Origin: Bacteroidales bacterium
GTDB taxonomy: Bacteria; Bacteroidota; Bacteroidia; Bacteroidales; WCHB1-69
Reading direction: 5' to 3'
Length of the DNA: 38,676 nt
Assembly (NCBI GenBank): GCA_017961265.1
Contig: JAGCXN010000020.1
Span: 1-38,676 of the forward strand
Each line of letters begins with the position of its first letter. Positions within the stretch are counted from its first letter, which is position 1. The translations under genes and the position numbers were made by a program. Below, piece by piece: positions 9,288-15,815 of this stretch. The notes beneath the pieces were generated by a model, which had not been told where the DNA came from, did not search any database, and saw only the letters and a list, made by a program, of their open reading frames with translations.

Positions 9288-9647
9288 TTACTTCTGTTTG
9301 GCATCCTCTTTTTCCTTCCTCCGTATCCGGATTGTCAGCTGCACCTGCGCTTCGGGGTGGGCATCCGGGTTGATACGGTTGATGCGGCACTCGAAAAGGT
9401 CGTCGTGGCCTGTGTCGAAGAAGGGTGAGAGTTTCTGGTTGTCACCGCGGGGAATGTAGCCGAGGAGGAAGTCCTCGCCATCGCTGTTGAGGATGACCTG
9501 CACAGCTTCAGGGTCGTAGCGGTTGTCGGCTTCACGCTCCAAGCGCAGCGGCATTCCTATTTTCAAACGGTCCCAAACAAGATCTGCATCGTGAAACTTG
9601 CGACCAGCCAAGTGGCAGTCCATGTAAAATTTGCTTTGTGCTTTCAT
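9288..9647 (-). CDS. HIRAN domain protein
   Basis: The protein has 119 residues. The segment FYMDCHLAGRKFHDADLVWD, then IGMPLRLEREADNRYDPEAV and FLLGYIPRGDNQ (about residues 7-75), matches the HIRAN domain. This small SH3-like fold is best known from Rad5/HLTF, where it binds DNA ends; stand-alone bacterial copies also occur. The start at 9647 is fixed by the -7 box at 9673-9680, which excludes the longer frame beginning at 9689. It is the last gene of the 9.3-15.1 kb block and carries its own copy of the shared promoter box. A role in DNA repair or stress is plausible but unproven. Confidence 0.8.
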   Translation of the reverse strand: MKAQSKFYMDCHLAGRKFHDADLVWDRLKIGMPLRLEREADNRYDPEAVQVILNSDGEDFLLGYIPRGDNQKLSPFFDTGHDDLFECRINRINPDAHPEAQVQLTIRIRRKEKEDAKQK

Positions 9648-9672: not shown

Positions 9673-9708
9673 CAAAAATATACAGGCACTGCACCAAAAA
9701 ACGGGCCA
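9673..9708 (-). promoter_or_regulatory. Shared-box promoter of the HIRAN gene
   Basis: The -7 box TATTTTTG (9680-9673, minus strand) is preceded, exactly 8 bp upstream, by a 20-bp box at 9689-9708. On the plus strand the box reads CTGCACCAAAAAACGGGCCA, two mismatches from the copies at 10842 and 15084. The box covers the -33 position. Confidence 0.65.
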
Positions 9709-9734
9709 GTGGTGGTTTTTTTTCAGAAAAAAAA

Positions 9735-10625
9735 CTACTCTTCCGCTGCTTCCATGTGCATCTGTTTGATTTTCAGCGCTATTTCTTTCGGTTCCAACAC
9801 CTTCAGCCAGCGGCCGCGGGAGAGAATCTGCGCCAAGAAGTCGCTCGTGGGGTGCAGACAGAGCTCAAAGTCCACGTAGTCGGAGCCTACTGCCAGCTCC
9901 TTTTGCGAGTGGTGCAACGGCAGGTCGCGCATGGCGTACCGCTCGTTGCCGAACGCCCGCAGCACCATCCGCTGCTTCGGCTCACTGCCGCCCTGCATCA
10001 CACCGTAATAGTTTGAAAAATAGGTCTGTGCATCAAAATCCGGAGCCAGTTCAAACGTCTTGTCCAGCAGCACCATTTCCGTGATGCGGTCGAACGAGAG
10101 GGTGAGGAAGCCGCCGTCAGCCATACGCCCCAGCAGGTACCAGCGGCGCCGGAAAAGTTTGATGCAGTAGGGTTCTATCACCCAGTGGCTTACATTATCC
10201 TTCCCATAACGCTGGTAGCTGATGAAAAGGCACCGGTTTTCGCGCATCGCCTCCACCACCATCGGCAGGTGCTCGCTCTCGCTGGGGATGCTTTCGAGCA
10301 GGATGCGGTCGTGCAGACCGCGTGCCTCGCTTACGATATTGCTGACCGTGAGCGTGTTCAGCATCCACTGCTGCACACTCTCCTCGCGGAACAGCTCCGT
10401 ATCATCGATGTAATAGCGGTTTTCATTATCGCACTCGATGATGATGCCGAACATCTCCTCCACTTCGGTGCGGTGTCGGCGGAAGGTGGTGCGGCTGAAC
10501 TCCATGCCGTCGCTCATCTCGGTGCGCAGCCAACGTTCGTTGATTTCGCGCAGGCTGATGCGCCCCGCCCGTCGGATGGTGCCCACTAACCATACATATT
10601 CTTTGAAAAGTGCAGATGCTTTCAT
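9735..10625 (-). CDS. WYL-domain transcriptional regulator
   Basis: The protein has 296 residues. An N-terminal helix-turn-helix region (about 1-80: RAGRISLREINERWLR and EFSRTTFRRHRTEV) is followed by a WYL domain (about 125-195). The literal WYL triplet is at 162-164 in RRRWYLLGRM, preceded by HWVIEPYCIKLF. A WCX-like C-terminal region follows (about 225-290). WYL regulators sense ligands such as nucleic acids or nucleotides through the WYL fold and often control defence or DNA-damage genes. It is the only clear DNA-binding regulator in a block where four promoters share one box, so it is the prime candidate to bind that box, including at its own promoter. A 33-bp-period triple repeat lies about 100-180 bp upstream. 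Confidence 0.88.
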   Translation of the reverse strand: MKASALFKEYVWLVGTIRRAGRISLREINERWLRTEMSDGMEFSRTTFRRHRTEVEEMFGIIIECDNENRYYIDDTELFREESVQQWMLNTLTVSNIVSEARGLHDRILLESIPSESEHLPMVVEAMRENRCLFISYQRYGKDNVSHWVIEPYCIKLFRRRWYLLGRMADGGFLTLSFDRITEMVLLDKTFELAPDFDAQTYFSNYYGVMQGGSEPKQRMVLRAFGNERYAMRDLPLHHSQKELAVGSDYVDFELCLHPTSDFLAQILSRGRWLKVLEPKEIALKIKQMHMEAAEE

Positions 10626-10670
10626 ATTTCGATAATTTCGGCAAAAATAGGAAAAATGTTTTCAATGCGG

Positions 10671-10706
10671 CAAAAGTACCACCCGACTGCGCCAAAAAGC
10701 GGACCA
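10671..10706 (-). promoter_or_regulatory. Shared-box promoter of the WYL gene
   Basis: The -7 box TACTTTTG (10678-10671, minus strand) and the shared box at 10687-10706 are separated by 8 bp. On the plus strand the box reads CTGCGCCAAAAAGCGGACCA. A second possible -7 box, TATTTTTG, is at 10649-10642, nearer the ATG at 10625. Confidence 0.65.
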
Positions 10707-10723
10707 GCTGCAAATTGCTATCA

Positions 10724-10808
10724 CATTTTTCTTGACGAATAATTGATGTTTTTACACACTTTTCTTGACGAATAACCGCTGTAATGATACAATTTTCTTG
10801 ACGAATAA
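10724..10808. repeat. Three direct repeats with an exact 33-bp period
   Basis: The 19-nt unit CANTTTTCTTGACGAATAA occurs at 10724-10742, 10757-10775 and 10790-10808, identical except at N. The intervening 14 bp are unrelated. The period is three DNA turns, placing all copies on the same face of the helix. The array lies between the AAA+ gene and the WYL gene, upstream of the WYL promoter. With only three units and no nearby cas genes it is not called CRISPR. Confidence 0.85.
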
Positions 10809-10841
10809 TGAGCGGGCACTTTTTTTTCTGAAAATTTATAC

Positions 10842-10861
10842 CTGCGCCAAAAAGCGGGCCA
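10842..10861 (-). promoter_or_regulatory. Orphan copy of the shared promoter box
   Basis: CTGCGCCAAAAAGCGGGCCA on the plus strand is identical to the copy at 15084-15103, but no TAnnTTTG follows at the expected 8-bp distance. It lies 21 bp beyond the stop of the AAA+ gene and upstream of the 33-bp repeat array. It may be an operator without a promoter or a decayed promoter. Confidence 0.55.
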
Positions 10862-10882
10862 AAGTGGAAGTTTTTCTCGTGA

Positions 10883-12523
10883 TTACCCTTCGATCGCCAA
10901 ATCTTCCTTTATGATTTCCGCCAGCTTTGCCGTGGTAAGATTCACCTCTTTGGAGAGACGGTTCGCCTGCTTCTGCAACGTGTGCTCAAAAACATTCCTG
11001 ACAAAACGGGCGTTGCCGAAGTTTTCGTCCTTGTGCGCCACCACTTGGGTAAAGTAAGCCTTCAGTGTTTCCGATGCTTCGCTTGACAAGGTGTAGTCGA
11101 ACTGTTTCAGCTGTTTGCAGAATATCTGATAAAGTTCGTCGGCGTTGTAGTCGGGGAACTCAATGTAGCGGCTGAACCGCGACTGCAGGCCGGGGTTGGA
11201 GTTGATGAACGCCTTCATCTCGTTCGTGTAGCCGGCCAAGATCACCACCAATCGTTTGCGTTCATCCTCCATGCGTTTGAGCAAGGTTGCGATGGCTTCC
11301 CTGCCGTAATCCCTTTCGTCGCCAAGTAGCGAATAGGCCTCGTCGATAAAAAGGACGCCGCCCAAAGCGTGGTCGATGACTTTGTTCGTCTTCACGGCAG
11401 TCTGCCCGACATACTCCCCGACAAGGCCGGATCGGTCGGTTTCCACCAGATGTCCTTTCGACACCACACCGAGCTCCTTGTAGATTTTGGCCAGAATACG
11501 GGCCACGGTGGTCTTTCCCGTGCCGGGATTGCCGGTGAAGACGCAGTGGTACGATATCGGGGAAACCCGCATGCCCTTGTTTCCGCGCGCGCTCTGAATA
11601 CGGATGTAGTTCGTGAGTGCCGCCACATCCTGCTTCACGCTTTCCAGACCAATTAGATCGTCCAAAGCTTTCCGCGACCCGAAATCCCCATCCAAAGGCG
11701 CTCTATAGTATTCTGTCTCCGGCATGTCCATGTCTCCTGCCACCGCAATGTTGTTTCCATCGCTTTGCAGTTGCATGATGGAATTCAGAAACTTCGCCTC
11801 TTCTTCTGTAACTGTATTGTCGGCTTTGGCCATGATGGAGGTGAAACGGTACAGCAGCACCAGATATTTCTGCTTTTGAAGCTCGTCGATTTGGTCCAAG
11901 ACGTGCGCAACCATGAACAAATTTGAGTCTTCGGCATCATGCCATGAAAAATAGCACTCTTTTAGGACGCTTTCTGCCAGAATATGGTTAGAGTAGCGAT
12001 ACAAATCCCGATAGTTGTCGTAAGTGAGTCTCTCCCCACCCATTGTCCGCTCCATGAAATAGAAGAGCGCATAACTGGTTTTGTCAAGACGGTCATACGG
12101 AAGGTGGAGTCCTTTGCCGCAATGTGCCATATCTATCCAAAAAAGATATTGTATTTTGCTGGTGGGATCTTTAATCGTATTATCGCCATCGTGCAGCTCA
12201 AATCTGTCAGATGCATCCCTGAACTCCTGCGAGGAGATGGCAGAATCATACACGGTCATCAGGTCGTCCACCACCTTGGAGATTTGGTTGAAATAGTCGC
12301 GGTCGATATCCCTTGAAGTTGTAGTTATACTATTGGAGGATGAGAATGTAGATTTAGAAGAAGTGTTAGAGGAGGACGCATCATCACTTACTCCGTTAAT
12401 AACGTATGTGATAAAAATAATCAAAGGAACGCCAATGATTACACCCAACCACCATGGTTCATCAATGAATACTGCCATTATCAGAAACGCCACAATCCAA
12501 AAACCGCAACCTAACTTTTTCAT
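10883..12523 (-). CDS. Membrane-anchored TerB-like/CbbX-type AAA+ ATPase
   Basis: The protein has 546 residues. Two closely spaced hydrophobic segments at about 5-20 and 25-43 anchor the N-terminus; a Ser/Thr-rich linker follows (46-70). Residues about 215-255 include RFTSIMAKADNTVTEEEAKFL, resembling the acidic core of TerB-like helical domains. The C-terminal part is a CbbX/SpoVK-type AAA+ domain: Walker A GNPGTGKTT (331-339), Walker B GVLFIDEAYSLL (389-400), GLQSRFSRYIEF with the arginine-finger region, and FGNARFVRNVFE (sensor 2). Relatives remodel protein complexes. The cytosolic ATPase held at the membrane next to a TerB-like domain recalls stress-response AAA modules, but the function is unknown. 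It has its own shared-box promoter (12549-12583). Confidence 0.85.
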   Translation of the reverse strand: MKKLGCGFWIVAFLIMAVFIDEPWWLGVIIGVPLIIFITYVINGVSDDASSSNTSSKSTFSSSNSITTTSRDIDRDYFNQISKVVDDLMTVYDSAISSQEFRDASDRFELHDGDNTIKDPTSKIQYLFWIDMAHCGKGLHLPYDRLDKTSYALFYFMERTMGGERLTYDNYRDLYRYSNHILAESVLKECYFSWHDAEDSNLFMVAHVLDQIDELQKQKYLVLLYRFTSIMAKADNTVTEEEAKFLNSIMQLQSDGNNIAVAGDMDMPETEYYRAPLDGDFGSRKALDDLIGLESVKQDVAALTNYIRIQSARGNKGMRVSPISYHCVFTGNPGTGKTTVARILAKIYKELGVVSKGHLVETDRSGLVGEYVGQTAVKTNKVIDHALGGVLFIDEAYSLLGDERDYGREAIATLLKRMEDERKRLVVILAGYTNEMKAFINSNPGLQSRFSRYIEFPDYNADELYQIFCKQLKQFDYTLSSEASETLKAYFTQVVAHKDENFGNARFVRNVFEHTLQKQANRLSKEVNLTTAKLAEIIKEDLAIEG

Positions 12524-12548
12524 CTGAATATCAGTTTATTTCAGTCTG

Positions 12549-12583
12549 CAAAAATACAATAAATATGCATCAAAAGCAGGCCA
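12549..12583 (-). promoter_or_regulatory. Shared-box promoter of the AAA+ gene
   Basis: The -7 box TATTTTTG (12556-12549, minus strand) lies exactly 8 bp from a diverged box at 12565-12583 (ATGCATCAAAAGCAGGCCA on the plus strand). This is the most diverged copy and is one base shorter in the A-tract, yet it keeps the GGCCA end and the same spacing. Confidence 0.5.
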
Positions 12584-12593
12584 GTATGAACAA

Positions 12594-13643
12594 TTATTGT
12601 TCTTTTTCGGGCCTTCCCGCCCTGCCTAATACCTCCTTCCCCGTCGCACGGCTGTAGAGGATGCCGTCTTTGGAAAAATAGACCGGGTTGTCGGGATGAA
12701 CTTCCACGTAGGGCTTGTCCTCTTCGGGATCGTCAATCATCTCCTCGAAGTAGAAGTCGTAGGCGATTTCTATTGTGCTTTTGGGAAAATAGACTTTATC
12801 GCAAATACCTGAAATCGACCAAGCTTCCACCTCTTTCGTACCTTCAGGGATATTCAACTCATTACAATAAAATCCCACAAAGGCACCATATCTTATATAT
12901 TTCAGATTGTCAGGCAAATGCAGCTTTTCAATAGGTACATATTGGAAACAAAACGCTGGAATCTCCTCTATTTTATCTGGAAGCGACACTTCACTAAGAT
13001 TTGTCCCGCAAAAGGCATACTTTCCTATAAAGCGCAGACTACTGGGAAAGTTGATGGCGACAAGGCCGTCGCTCATATTGAAAGCCTGCTCTTCAATGCT
13101 AACAAACCCATCAGGAAGAACGACCTCAAACTCGGGTTTGTCAATGCCTGCTAAAGCCAGACGCCCGATGGTATTTATTGTACCCGGTATTGTAGTTGTG
13201 CCTTTAACATTCTGGTAATGAATCAGGACTTGTCCATCTTCAGAAGTTAGAATCCCATTCTGATATAGAAATCGTGTACCATATTTCTTATTGACCAGCA
13301 TTTTCAAGATTGAAGAAGGCTGCTTTTCTGTTGCATCATAGGGAATGTCTTCGTCGTTGATTTCTCCGTCGCAGTCCAACAAATGCATGTCTTTGACATC
13401 AAATTCTGCCGGATGGAAATCTTTTGCAATGAGGTCAAAGCCAAAAAGCAAATCAAAGCTGTCCCATCCGATGTTTATTTCCCGTCGTATTTGAGAGACA
13501 TTTTCGCTGACCTTTTCTTTAAAATTGTCATCCCATAAGTTACAACGGACTTTACCGACGAGAACCATTTTTTCGCAATCCTGATTCTCCGCAATCCAGT
13601 TGGCAAGCGATTGTTTTCCGTATTCAAAAATGGCTGTTTTCAT
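12594..13643 (-). CDS. BspA-type leucine-rich-repeat protein, cytosolic
   Basis: The protein has 349 residues and no signal peptide, so it is probably cytosolic, unlike most BspA-like surface proteins. Residues about 130-310 hold LRR_5-type repeats: VVLPDGFVSIEEQAFN, INFPSSLRFIGKYAF, VSLPDKIEEIPAFCF, LHLPDNLKYIRYGAF and LNIPEGTKEVEAW. The N-terminal 120 residues (MKTAIFEYGKQSLANWIAEN and onward) match nothing I recognise. The C-terminus has an acidic patch (EEMIDDPEEDKPYVEVHPDN). The ATG lies 4 nt after the stop of the upstream unknown gene, so the two are almost certainly translated from one mRNA. A recognition or scaffold role is a guess. Confidence 0.82.
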   Translation of the reverse strand: MKTAIFEYGKQSLANWIAENQDCEKMVLVGKVRCNLWDDNFKEKVSENVSQIRREINIGWDSFDLLFGFDLIAKDFHPAEFDVKDMHLLDCDGEINDEDIPYDATEKQPSSILKMLVNKKYGTRFLYQNGILTSEDGQVLIHYQNVKGTTTIPGTINTIGRLALAGIDKPEFEVVLPDGFVSIEEQAFNMSDGLVAINFPSSLRFIGKYAFCGTNLSEVSLPDKIEEIPAFCFQYVPIEKLHLPDNLKYIRYGAFVGFYCNELNIPEGTKEVEAWSISGICDKVYFPKSTIEIAYDFYFEEMIDDPEEDKPYVEVHPDNPVYFSKDGILYSRATGKEVLGRAGRPEKEQ

Positions 13644-13647
13644 AATC

Positions 13648-15039
13648 TCAAATGTGTCTTGAAATGTTTGTGACGGCTATATTAGTTTTATCATCAAAAT
13701 CCAACATTTTCTGAACATACTTGGAGAACAAGTCTTCCAATTTCTTTGCTTGTTCTGTATTTAAAAGTTGGCCAGAATGTCCCTTGCTCCAGTCGAAGTC
13801 AGGAATGGCCTCGTAAAGCTGTGAAGTGGTGATGATGGGGTGTACCTCAGGGTTTATCATAAAATTGGGCTTCATATCCATGTAATGAATCCTTCTGCTG
13901 TTTCTTTGGGGATTCCAATCCTCGTCAGCGTATGGCTGCGAGATGAAAATTCCGCTCATCACGATGCCTGTATTTCCATCACCCACCCTTACCATATAAA
14001 AACGGTCACCCATTTTGGCTTTTTCCCACTCATAGACGCTCCAGTTAAAATAGCCTGTGTGAATAATCTTTATTCCTTCAATATGATTCTGCATTGTGAT
14101 GCTTGATATGGAAGGATTCCACTTCAGAATAAAGGTTTGTTGTTCTTCCGAATAGCCATTTCCTGGATATTCTGGATATTGAAAGAGGTCGTCTGGTTGA
14201 AAGTGTTCTGCGACTTCCATCATCTGGCGTGCATCTTTGACCGTAAATTCAGGGGCACGATAAAACTGATAATCATCAATGCGAGCCAATGGATGATTGT
14301 ATGCGACGTAAGGCAATGCCTCAAAAGGAATAACAACCTGTTTGCCGCTATCATGATCACAAATGGAAAACAATGGGGCAAATTCTATATAATTGAAATC
14401 GTCAAGTTTATTATCTTTAATGTGAATGATGGACAAACGTTTGGAATCAGAATTGTCCTTGGGATTCTGTATGGCCAGTCTGGACCATGTGCTTTCTTTT
14501 CCCGATAGTGACCATTGAATTTCGACGAAATAATCAATCAACTTCAAAAAACTTTGCATATCAGGATGATGCAAATCAATGTTGAAATCTTTGAGACTAT
14601 TTGGCCCGATGCAATACGGCAGAAACAATCCAAAATATGTTATAGCAGACGAAGAGTGGTTTGCCAATGCGCATGTCGCCTGCATAGAACTTTCCATTTG
14701 TGCCTCTACCCATTCTTTATCATAGAAATCAGAAACGGCTTCAATCTCCTCATCATCCTCTGTATAAACTTGCACTTGATATGTCTCTTTCAATGTTTCT
14801 ATGGCATTGATAAACAGATAATAATCCTCTTTTGAAGCGCAAGAACAAATTCGTACTTCATATTCGTCATTCTCGCGATTAATTTCAATACCCCGTAAAC
14901 TTTTTTCCTTTACACCACATTTCAAACTCGGAAAATCATCACTTACAATAATAAGAGGCGAAGATTTAGCACACAAAGAAGTGAATAGTTCATCTGGAAC
15001 AATTTGTCTGTTTGTCTTAAAATAAACCGAATAACTCAT
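13648..15039 (-). CDS. Unknown protein with a possible PUA/EVE-like C-terminal region
   Basis: The protein has 463 residues, no signal peptide and no membrane segments. I chose the ATG at 15039 (MSYSVYFKTNRQ) because the -7 box at 15075-15068 places transcription start near 15062, so the upstream GTG at 15063 would not be in the message; an ATG at 15051 is the alternative. I do not recognise the N-terminal 330 residues. Further on, the segment EKAKMGDRFYMVRVGDGNTG followed by IVMSGIFISQPY resembles the core of PUA-like/EVE-like domains, which bind modified bases and often sit in restriction-type proteins. That match is by eye. The region is A+T-richer than the housekeeping genes. It is the first gene of a two-gene operon with the LRR protein. 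Confidence 0.7.
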   Translation of the reverse strand: MSYSVYFKTNRQIVPDELFTSLCAKSSPLIIVSDDFPSLKCGVKEKSLRGIEINRENDEYEVRICSCASKEDYYLFINAIETLKETYQVQVYTEDDEEIEAVSDFYDKEWVEAQMESSMQATCALANHSSSAITYFGLFLPYCIGPNSLKDFNIDLHHPDMQSFLKLIDYFVEIQWSLSGKESTWSRLAIQNPKDNSDSKRLSIIHIKDNKLDDFNYIEFAPLFSICDHDSGKQVVIPFEALPYVAYNHPLARIDDYQFYRAPEFTVKDARQMMEVAEHFQPDDLFQYPEYPGNGYSEEQQTFILKWNPSISSITMQNHIEGIKIIHTGYFNWSVYEWEKAKMGDRFYMVRVGDGNTGIVMSGIFISQPYADEDWNPQRNSRRIHYMDMKPNFMINPEVHPIITTSQLYEAIPDFDWSKGHSGQLLNTEQAKKLEDLFSKYVQKMLDFDDKTNIAVTNISRHI

Positions 15040-15067
15040 AATATCATACATTTTTAATTTCACGCGG

Positions 15068-15103
15068 CAAAACTACCACACAACTGCGCCAAAAAGCGGG
15101 CCA
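15068..15103 (-). promoter_or_regulatory. Shared-box promoter of the unknown/LRR operon
   Basis: The -7 box TAGTTTTG (15075-15068, minus strand) and the box CTGCGCCAAAAAGCGGGCCA (15084-15103, plus strand) are separated by 8 bp, as at the other three promoters. This copy equals the orphan at 10842-10861. Confidence 0.65.
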
Positions 15104-15160: not shown

Positions 15161-15619
15161 TCATTCCTTTTCAAATGCATATTTTTCGTCATATTGTATC
15201 CCGTGCGTGTCCAAAATTGACTTATATTCTTCATAGAATGTCTGTTTTTTATGGTGTTCCTCCTGATTGCAAATGTACTTTATTGCAGTATCTAACAAGG
15301 AAGGACTAACGGAAAAAGCTCCGTAACCGTCTTGCCAACAAAATTGTGCATAATAGTCATCAATTTGTTTAATCCATTTGCTGCTGTTGGCTTTGATGGT
15401 CCTAACAAAGTCCGTAAGAGCCATCGTTTTCGGGAGGGTTGCCAGAACGTGGACGTGGTTCTCTACCCCACCAATGGTGATGGGAACACCATTTATGTTT
15501 TTGATGATTCCACCAATATATTCGAATATTCGCGGAAGATCTTCTTTTCGCATAAGGATTCCTCTGCTCTTCACGTGGAAAACAAGATGGATGTCAATTT
15601 TTACAAGTGCGTTTGCCAT
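15161..15619 (-). CDS. Y1 (IS200-like) REP-associated transposase
   Basis: The protein has 152 residues. The HUH motif is HVH (55-57, in GGVENHVHVLATLP). The catalytic tyrosine is probably Y115 in AIKYICNQEEHH, followed four residues later by Q119, as in IS200/TnpA and TnpA_REP (RAYT) enzymes, which nick single-stranded DNA at hairpins. SKWIKQ and FCWQDGYGAFSVS are family signatures. The gene appears intact. It has no adjacent tnpB. The flank holds several REP-like palindromes (15653-15815) instead of IS ends, which favours a domesticated RAYT over a mobile IS200. I prefer the ATG at 15619; a start at 15649 is possible. Confidence 0.88.
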   Translation of the reverse strand: MANALVKIDIHLVFHVKSRGILMRKEDLPRIFEYIGGIIKNINGVPITIGGVENHVHVLATLPKTMALTDFVRTIKANSSKWIKQIDDYYAQFCWQDGYGAFSVSPSLLDTAIKYICNQEEHHKKQTFYEEYKSILDTHGIQYDEKYAFEKE

Positions 15620-15652
15620 ATTATGTTTTGTTTGTATGGGTACATACAACCT

Positions 15653-15815
15653 CGTTTGTGTTCTGTCGCCCCTACGGGGCTACTATTTAGTGGTGACACT
15701 TCATTCGTGCCGTGGACTTACGTCCACGTTTGTGTTCTGCGACCCCTACGGGGCCGCGCCGTATGCTGAACCCTGTAAGGGTGACCGACTACAGCCGCGG
15801 GTGTAAACCCACGGC
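15653..15815. repeat. REP-like palindrome cluster next to the Y1 transposase
   Basis: A 28-nt unit (CGTTTGTGTTCTG followed by a CCCCTACGGGG hairpin) occurs at 15653-15680 and 15727-15754, 74 bp apart, with three substitutions. Between and after them are CGTGGAC/GTCCACG (15711-15728, TTAC loop), ACCCT/AGGGT (15770-15782) and GCCGCGGGT/ACCCACGGC (15794-15815). The CCCC-TRC-GGGG and GG-x-TTAC-x-CC forms recur at 6453-6536. The cluster fills most of the 267-bp gap between the transposase and tcdA. Confidence 0.8.

What the first reader, a model, noticed from the sequence alone, without database searches (positions are those of the whole stretch)
9673..15103. Shared promoter box defining an undescribed minus-strand regulon around a WYL regulator
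Four promoters (HIRAN, WYL, TerB-like/AAA+, unknown+LRR operon) carry a 19-20 bp box (consensus CTGCGCCAAAAAGCGGGCCA on the plus strand) at exactly 8 bp from a TAnnTTTG -7 element: 9689-9708, 10687-10706, 12565-12583, 15084-15103. A fifth copy at 10842-10861 has no -7 box. I noticed no copies elsewhere in the 38.7 kb. On the coding strand the box holds two TGGC half-sites 12 bp apart and covers the -33 position, as for an operator or an activator site. The block ties a DNA-binding sensor, a membrane AAA+ ATPase, a DNA-end-type HIRAN domain and a PUA-like protein to one signal, suggesting a stress or defence system.
Basis: partly seen in the sequence, partly recalled or inferred. Interest (0 to 1): 0.8.

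Follow-up and report, generated by a model that had tools for sequence, protein, structure and literature searches.

The report
WYL regulator with matching promoter box
A repeated promoter signal in a gut bacterium belongs to a family of switch proteins (WYL regulators), many of them paired with their own version of the signal at a fixed distance from the start of transcription, and the genes behind it often handle DNA ends or defence, which makes it a candidate damage or phage alarm.

Summary
The box stands three times exactly 8 nt before TAnnTTTG, once without a -7 element, and once in a degenerate gapped form; within 2 mismatches it occurs nowhere else in the 1.89-Mb (76.8% complete) genome. 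In the genus it occurs within 2 mismatches only in the 4 of 13 genomes with a close WYL orthologue. It is a variant of a 19-bp dyad, TGNNCC-N7-GGNNCA, centred 19 nt before TAnnTTTG, found around WYL homologues of about 35-84% identity in Bacteroidales. The register peak is sharp (64 dyads against 8-21 at 21 other distances) and absent from control regions. Dyad letters change with WYL identity. Box promoters lack the -33 TTG and carry an oriented TTG 14 nt before TA, the spacing of the mycobacterial PafBC promoter. Best reading: a WYL homodimer activates these promoters, replacing -33 recognition. Targets: HIRAN most often, LRR/'FWNP' proteins, a PD-(D/E)XK nuclease, a UvrD helicase, cas3, cas12a. 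Binding, activation and signal (ssDNA?) are untested.

The parts
9689..9708 (-). WYL box (dyad) of the HIRAN promoter, TGGCCCGTTTTTTGGTGCAG on the coding strand
   Evidence: dyad in the same place before HIRAN in relatives
9673..9680 (-). -7 element TATTTTTG, 8 nt behind the box
9288..9647 (-). HIRAN-domain protein (ATG start taken at 9647)
   Evidence: PF08797, 57.1 bits
10687..10706 (-). WYL box of the WYL gene's own promoter
10671..10678 (-). -7 element TACTTTTG of the WYL promoter
9735..10625 (-). WYL transcription factor, 296 aa
   Evidence: PF13280 45.8 bits, above cut-off; WCX 19.4 bits, below cut-off 23.9; PDB sequence relatives PafBC, DriD, CapW, BrxR
10842..10861 (-). perfect box without a TAnnTTTG
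12565..12583 (-). degenerate box (one deletion, four mismatches) of the AAA+ gene
   Evidence: read; in relative G004 an AAA+ gene of the same kind has a 1-mismatch box
12549..12556 (-). -7 element TATTTTTG of the AAA+ gene
   Evidence: read
10883..12523 (-). CbbX/SpoVK-like AAA+ ATPase with a hydrophobic N-terminus
   Evidence: PF00004 and PF17866; TIGR02881 314 bits, below its cut-off 423
12594..13643 (-). BspA-type LRR_5 protein, presumably co-transcribed with the gene before it
   Evidence: PF13306
15084..15103 (-). perfect WYL box of the FWNP-domain gene
15068..15075 (-). -7 element TAGTTTTG
13648..15051 (-). protein with a C-terminal 'FWNP' domain (about 165 aa, my name) that recurs in ORFs of relatives' loci; ATG at 15051 or 15039
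   Evidence: no PDB match and no convincing Pfam match for the domain

Best explanation
The box is the binding site of the WYL protein encoded inside the block. A WYL homodimer (inferred from the dyad) sits on a 19-bp inverted repeat centred 19 nt before TAnnTTTG. There it takes the place of the missing -33 element and recruits the housekeeping RNA polymerase, as PafBC, SiwR and DriD do: an activator, with ligand binding by the WYL domain as the probable trigger. In this genome the regulon is one island (HIRAN, WYL, AAA+, LRR and FWNP proteins). In three Prevotellaceae relatives, WYL homologues with other dyad letters have 10-13 candidate sites spread over the genome. Shown here: box, register, co-occurrence, co-variation, missing -33, oriented TTG. 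Inferred: binding, activation, and the signal, probably DNA ends or ssDNA from damage or phage attack.
For: Co-occurrence: (4 of 4 genomes with a >=81% identical WYL have box clusters; 0 of 9 others have a match within 2 mm). Spacing: 17 of 18 window-type boxes and 16 of 17 (one site in both) have TAnnTTTG at 8 nt, none at another offset. Register test: 64 dyads with >=5 of 6 pairs at distance 19 against 8-21 at 21 other distances; 19 against 0-8, on the set that suggested the arms; flat in 40 control regions (5 against 0-7 at 13 other distances; core-type dyads 0.15 against 6.85 per 100 kb). Co-variation at non-homologous genes: arm identity 0.87 within a locus, 0.86 at WYL identity >=75%, falling step by step to 0.56 below 35%; 0 of 1000 permutations. 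-33 replacement: TTG at spacer 18-19 in 0 of 76 distinct boxes against 66 of 501 other promoters; TTG 14 nt before TA in 52 of 76, mirror image in 5. Two dyads have a -7 element in register on both sides (L069, L110). Precedents: PafBC motif tTGTCRgtg-8nt-TannnT (passage, PMC5656591); SiwR 19-bp palindrome (passages); DriD site overlapping -35 at constant distance (passages). My HIRAN profile finds nothing in the 12 distant WYL loci L059-L070, several of which carry the dyad, so WYL rather than HIRAN is the constant partner.
Against: No binding or transcript data. A repressor on the same site is not excluded. One of the two arginines that PafBC needs for ssDNA (passages) is missing: the second R of RxxR is R in 60 of 60, the first is S 43, A 15, G 1, C 1. 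umuD, a classic damage gene, has the dyad in only 1 of 26 upstream regions scanned. 27 of 97 loci with a WYL gene show no box by my rule. In 10 loci at least one dyad stands one nt further away (L080, L082, L084, L087, L091-L096). 9 of 33 genome-wide dyad matches have no TAnnTTTG within 30 nt. TGTACC..GGTACA recurs with WYLs only 47-49% identical to the window's (L120, L134, L136). My box rule fixes some arm letters, which raises all identities.
Confidence: 0.72

Rival explanations
1. The WYL protein is a repressor (BrxR/CapW-like) that covers the -33 region; a ligand releases it and turns the genes on.
For: WYL regulators of defence systems are known (titles and abstract starts; that BrxR and CapW repress is recalled). 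The window's WYL gene and 17 of 25 distant homologues carry the dyad in their own promoter, as autorepressors often do.
Against: Strict register, loss of the -33 TTG and an oriented TTG at N14 are not needed for a repressor and match the activators PafBC, SiwR and DriD.
Confidence: 0.22
2. The box is recognised by another factor (an alternative sigma factor or an unlinked regulator); the WYL gene is only one of its targets.
For: The box is asymmetric in the window, and oriented letters are typical of sigma contacts.
Against: The box varies with WYL identity at non-homologous genes and is present or absent with the WYL gene in the genus; different WYLs have different dyads of the same geometry.
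Confidence: 0.05
3. The copies are chance or a spread repeat element without function.
For: Repeats exist nearby: three 33-bp repeats at 10723-10809 and an IS200-like gene at 15161-15649.
Against: Fixed distance to the -7 element, sites before many unrelated genes, conservation across genera, and a nearly empty control.
Confidence: 0.01

Closest known systems
PafBC (mycobacterial WYL heterodimer, sigma adaptation)
   Same: WYL activator; promoter TTG-N14-TA with an 8-nt gap; PafBC sits between promoter DNA and the sigma domain that would contact -35 (passages)
   Different: heterodimer with a genome-wide DNA damage regulon at sigma A promoters; here a single protein, a dyad, and Bacteroidota -7 promoters
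SiwR (Mycobacterium smegmatis)
   Same: 19-bp imperfect palindrome between -35 and -10, adjacent targets, activator (passages)
   Different: DinB-like targets; needs two WYL arginines, of which only one seems kept here
DriD (Caulobacter)
   Same: 20-bp pseudo-palindrome overlapping -35 at the same distance from -10 in the five promoters compared; PDB sequence relative of the window protein (passages)
   Different: ssDNA ligand shown there, not here; different targets
BrxR / CapW
   Same: WYL regulators tied to phage defence; weak PDB-sequence relatives
   Different: repressors of one defence system each (recalled; only titles and abstract starts seen)

Membership tests
WYL-domain transcription factors | WYL domain | tested here: met
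   PF13280 45.8 bits against cut-off 21.8
WYL-domain transcription factors | WCX extension domain | tested here: inconclusive
   19.4 bits, below cut-off 23.9
[quoted passage not shown]
   no Pfam hit in residues 1-117; structure prediction never ran
DriD/SiwR/PafBC-type WYL activators | site over or next to -35/-26 at fixed distance from the -10 element | tested here: met
   one nt further in some loci
DriD/SiwR/PafBC-type WYL activators | poor or missing -35 element | tested here: met
   0 of 76 boxes with TTG at spacer 18-19 against 66 of 501
DriD/SiwR/PafBC-type WYL activators | both arginines of the RxxR ligand pair in the WYL domain | tested here: not met
   second R in 60 of 60, first R in 0 of 60; position mapped through the alignment, the pair from passages
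DriD/SiwR/PafBC-type WYL activators | transcription activation, ssDNA or genotoxic trigger | not testable with these tools
   needs bench work
PafBC | heterodimer or tandem fusion of two WYL proteins | tested here: not met
   single 296-aa protein with one WYL domain; of the neighbouring ORFs scanned by Pfam none is a second WYL protein
LexA SOS regulon | LexA repressor with CTAA-N5-TTAG or GGA-N5-TCC box | not tested
   both LexA ortholog groups are reported absent from Bacteroidales (passage of PMC8565304); no LexA search was made in this genome

The most novel reading that the evidence does not exclude
In Bacteroidales, which are reported to lack both Bacteroidetes LexA groups, a multiplied family of WYL activators with orthogonal, co-evolved dyads does the work of a DNA-end or damage alarm. 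It uses the same promoter geometry as mycobacterial PafBC (TTG-N14-TA, no -35/-33) and switches on HIRAN, nuclease/helicase and CRISPR effector genes (cas3, cas12a).
Probability: 0.3. Interest if true: 0.9.

Novelty: new variant of a known kind. Interest (0 to 1): 0.7.

Why it matters
My searches of the open-access library listed no paper on a WYL regulon in Bacteroidota; most subscription papers are not held there. The dyad rule would let the targets of many WYL proteins be read from sequence alone. It suggests that WYL sigma adaptation also works on the unusual -33/-7 promoters of this phylum, and it offers a testable candidate for damage or phage sensing in an order reported to lack the known LexA groups.

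Tried and rejected
Direct TGGC half-sites 12 bp apart: rejected, since relatives show perfect inverted repeats in the same place (TGTACC-N7-GGTACA, TGTCCC-N7-GGGACA) and the window box is an asymmetric form. A WYL-driven umuDC regulon: one fine site (L168/L183), but only 1 of 26 upstream regions scanned (28 loci looked at, 2 not located by my motif; L188 has a weak AT-rich repeat not of the core type), so not general; umuC was not looked for. The 920-aa nuclease as the housekeeping AddB: rejected, found in only 9 of 45 genomes; 8 of 10 copies have the dyad. Cas12a: dyad before 2 of 4 genes found. CbbX as a constant partner: P0003 profile found in 6 of 100 loci. PADLOC hits: the HIRAN protein matches the unnamed candidate PDC-M03B (1.4e-16), the AAA+ protein IetA weakly (2.3e-10). 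FWNP domain: no PDB sequence match and no convincing Pfam match.
Full report
OBSERVATION. The box CTGCGCCAAAAAGCGGGCCA is in the window at 9689, 10687, 10842 and 15084 within 2 mismatches (mean 0.01 in shuffles within 3 mismatches). A degenerate gapped copy lies at 12565. On the coding (minus) strand it is TGGCCCGCTTTTTGGCGCAG, followed after exactly 8 nt by TAnnTTTG at three of the four sites; 10842 has none. The own genome (1.89 Mb, 76.8% complete) has no other match within 2 mismatches, and two at 3.

GENES. HIRAN protein (PF08797, 57 bits), WYL protein (PF13280, 46 bits), an AAA+ protein with the AAA_lid_6 of CbbX/SpoVK, and a BspA-type LRR_5 protein. The gene behind the 15084 box (13648-15051) ends in a domain I call FWNP after its sequence; it has no PDB sequence match and no convincing Pfam match, but a profile of it finds 25 matches in ORFs of L053-L152.

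GENUS TEST. Of 13 genomes of the genus, four (G000, G001, G004, G006) have a WYL protein at least 81% identical. The same four have clusters of boxes within 2 mismatches; the other nine have none within 2 (G003 and G009 have one 3-mismatch hit each). G060, of another family, has a 68% identical WYL and one box before HIRAN. In these relatives the box precedes other genes too: FWNP-LRR proteins, a 649-aa protein, an AAA+ gene (G004). Of 18 window-type sites, 17 have TAnnTTTG at offset 8; two 3-mismatch hits elsewhere (L071, L072) have none.

FAMILY TEST. The best 80 of at least 579 loci with WYL homologues (41-84% identical; mostly ruminant-gut Bacteroidales by record title, one titled Lachnospiraceae) were fetched. 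L079 is the same contig as G060/L058. For every TAnnTTTG on both strands I scored an inverted repeat (arms 4-9 nt from the centre, chosen on the earlier loci) at each of 22 distances. At distance 19, 64 of 1371 have at least 5 of 6 pairs, against 8-21 at the 21 other distances; the highest of these, 21, is the neighbouring distance 20, used by the clade L084, L091-L095 and before cas3 in L080 and L082. The earlier set of the window and 20 loci gave 19 of 406 against 0-8. Forty control regions from 20 genomes (0.66 Mb) gave 5 of 490 at distance 19 against 0-7 at 13 other distances, and 1 core-type dyad against 93 in the 80 loci (0.15 against 6.85 per 100 kb); one control region (L232) shares DNA with the WYL locus L070, and the controls were not otherwise screened for WYL genes. 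The core-type rule was made on the WYL loci.

CO-VARIATION. The dyad before HIRAN reads TGGYCC..GGCGCA or close to it where WYL is 68% or more identical to the window's, mostly TGTACC..GGTACA or a near form at 59-67%, and TGTTCC..GAAACA in two Prevotella-type loci at 52-54%. Not all follows identity: L120, L134 and L136 (47-49%) again have TGTACC..GGTACA. Distant WYLs (36-43%) have TATGCC..GGCATA, TGTGCC..GGCACA or TATGAC..GTCATA-like dyads, up to six in 19 kb. Over 121 boxes in 70 of 97 loci that hold a WYL gene, comparing only boxes before non-homologous genes, arm identity is 0.87 within a locus and falls from 0.86 (WYL identity 75% or more) to 0.56 (below 35%); 0 of 1000 label shuffles reach the within-locus value. 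The rule fixes some arm letters, which raises every figure. In 17 of 25 distant loci the WYL's own promoter has the dyad (some of these loci are near-identical pairs). My HIRAN profile finds nothing in the 12 distant loci L059-L070, so the WYL gene is the common partner.

MECHANISM. Of ordinary ORF-linked TAnnTTTG promoters here, 132 of 506 carry TTG 18-20 nt upstream, against 0 of 48 dyad promoters. In a cleaner count, none of 76 distinct boxes has TTG at spacer 18-19, against 66 of 501 others (Fisher p 7e-5). Instead 52 of 76 have TTG exactly 14 nt before TA; the mirror image, expected equally often for a pure dyad, occurs in 5 (p 6e-11). The G of that TTG lies in the dyad arm. Two dyads (L069, L110) have a -7 element in register on both sides. 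The mycobacterial PafBC promoter is tTGTCRgtg-8nt-TannnT, that is TTG-N14-TA (passage in PMC5656591). SiwR binds a 19-bp imperfect palindrome between -35 and -10 and activates (passages in PMC10693628). DriD binds a 20-bp pseudo-palindrome overlapping -35, at the same distance from -10 in the five promoters compared, and activates (passages in the preprint PMC12340889). PafBC sits between promoter DNA and sigma domain 4 (passages in PMC11804915). I therefore take the WYL protein for an activator that replaces -33 recognition. This is inference from geometry.

TARGETS. In the window, six loci of G-genomes (L053-L058) and the 80 loci, 112 boxes gave 100 downstream ORFs. Clusters: HIRAN 30 (one record counted twice), FWNP/LRR group 19, PD-(D/E)XK nuclease 8 (domain tested in one, L114), WYL itself 7, a 509-524-aa orphan 5, cas3 2, others 1-4 each (domains). 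HIRAN is next door to WYL in 23 of 80 loci and within 2.5 kb in 27, those included. In 11 relatives searched genome-wide for one Prevotellaceae dyad within 3 mismatches, counts were 0-13, with 10-13 on many contigs in three, and one reversed-control hit in all 11 together. Of 33 sites read in the 30 fetched loci, 24 have TAnnTTTG, all at 9 nt behind the 19-mer, and 9 have none. Genes behind them include a UvrD helicase, the nuclease, a Cas12a start, an SNF2-PLD helicase, one umuD-like S24 peptidase, but also secreted-looking and unknown proteins. Cas12a has the dyad in 2 of 4 genes found.

AGAINST A SIMPLE SOS ANALOGY. umuD carries the dyad in 1 of 26 upstream regions scanned. Of the arginine pair that PafBC needs for ssDNA (passages; position mapped through), only the second is kept (60 of 60); the first position is S 43, A 15, G 1, C 1. 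The ligand may thus be another nucleic acid or nucleotide. Both LexA groups of Bacteroidetes are reported absent in Bacteroidales (passage in PMC8565304); I did not search for LexA in this genome.

VERDICT. A real, conserved WYL-dyad regulon, a Bacteroidota variant of the WYL activators. The local block is one of many.

Noticed in passing
window 10723-10809: Three head-to-tail 33-bp repeats with the core TTTTCTTGACGAATAA between the two boxes upstream of the WYL gene; by eye not in the 190 bp upstream of the WYL gene in G001, G004, G006 or G060.
   Followed up: partly
window 15161-15649: IS200-like (Y1_Tnp) transposase gene on the minus strand next to the box-bearing block, with a 39-nt direct repeat at 15642-15754.
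   Followed up: no
L132:9919-10413, L148:11136-11579, L117:17605-18036: The FWNP domain also occurs inside open frames of about 1400-1800 aa in WYL loci.
   Followed up: no
L080:11070-13259, L082:3143-5323: A cas3 gene downstream of the WYL gene, with a weaker dyad (TGGCTC-N7-GACGCA, 4 of 6 pairs) centred 20 nt before the -7 element.
   Followed up: partly
L263, L265: A WYL-type dyad in register before two cas12a gene starts (genomes G099 and G134); absent before those in G133 and G105.
   Followed up: partly
L069:14957-14975, L110:10968-10986: One dyad shared by two divergent promoters, each with TAnnTTTG in register 19.
   Followed up: partly
L068:5045-5731: A short FtsZ/tubulin-like GTPase (PF00091, 228 aa) behind a WYL-type dyad, near a dyad-driven AAA+ gene.
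   Followed up: no
L053:11212-12963: A GmrSD-type (type IV restriction-like) protein downstream of HIRAN and a SIMPL protein in G001.
   Followed up: no
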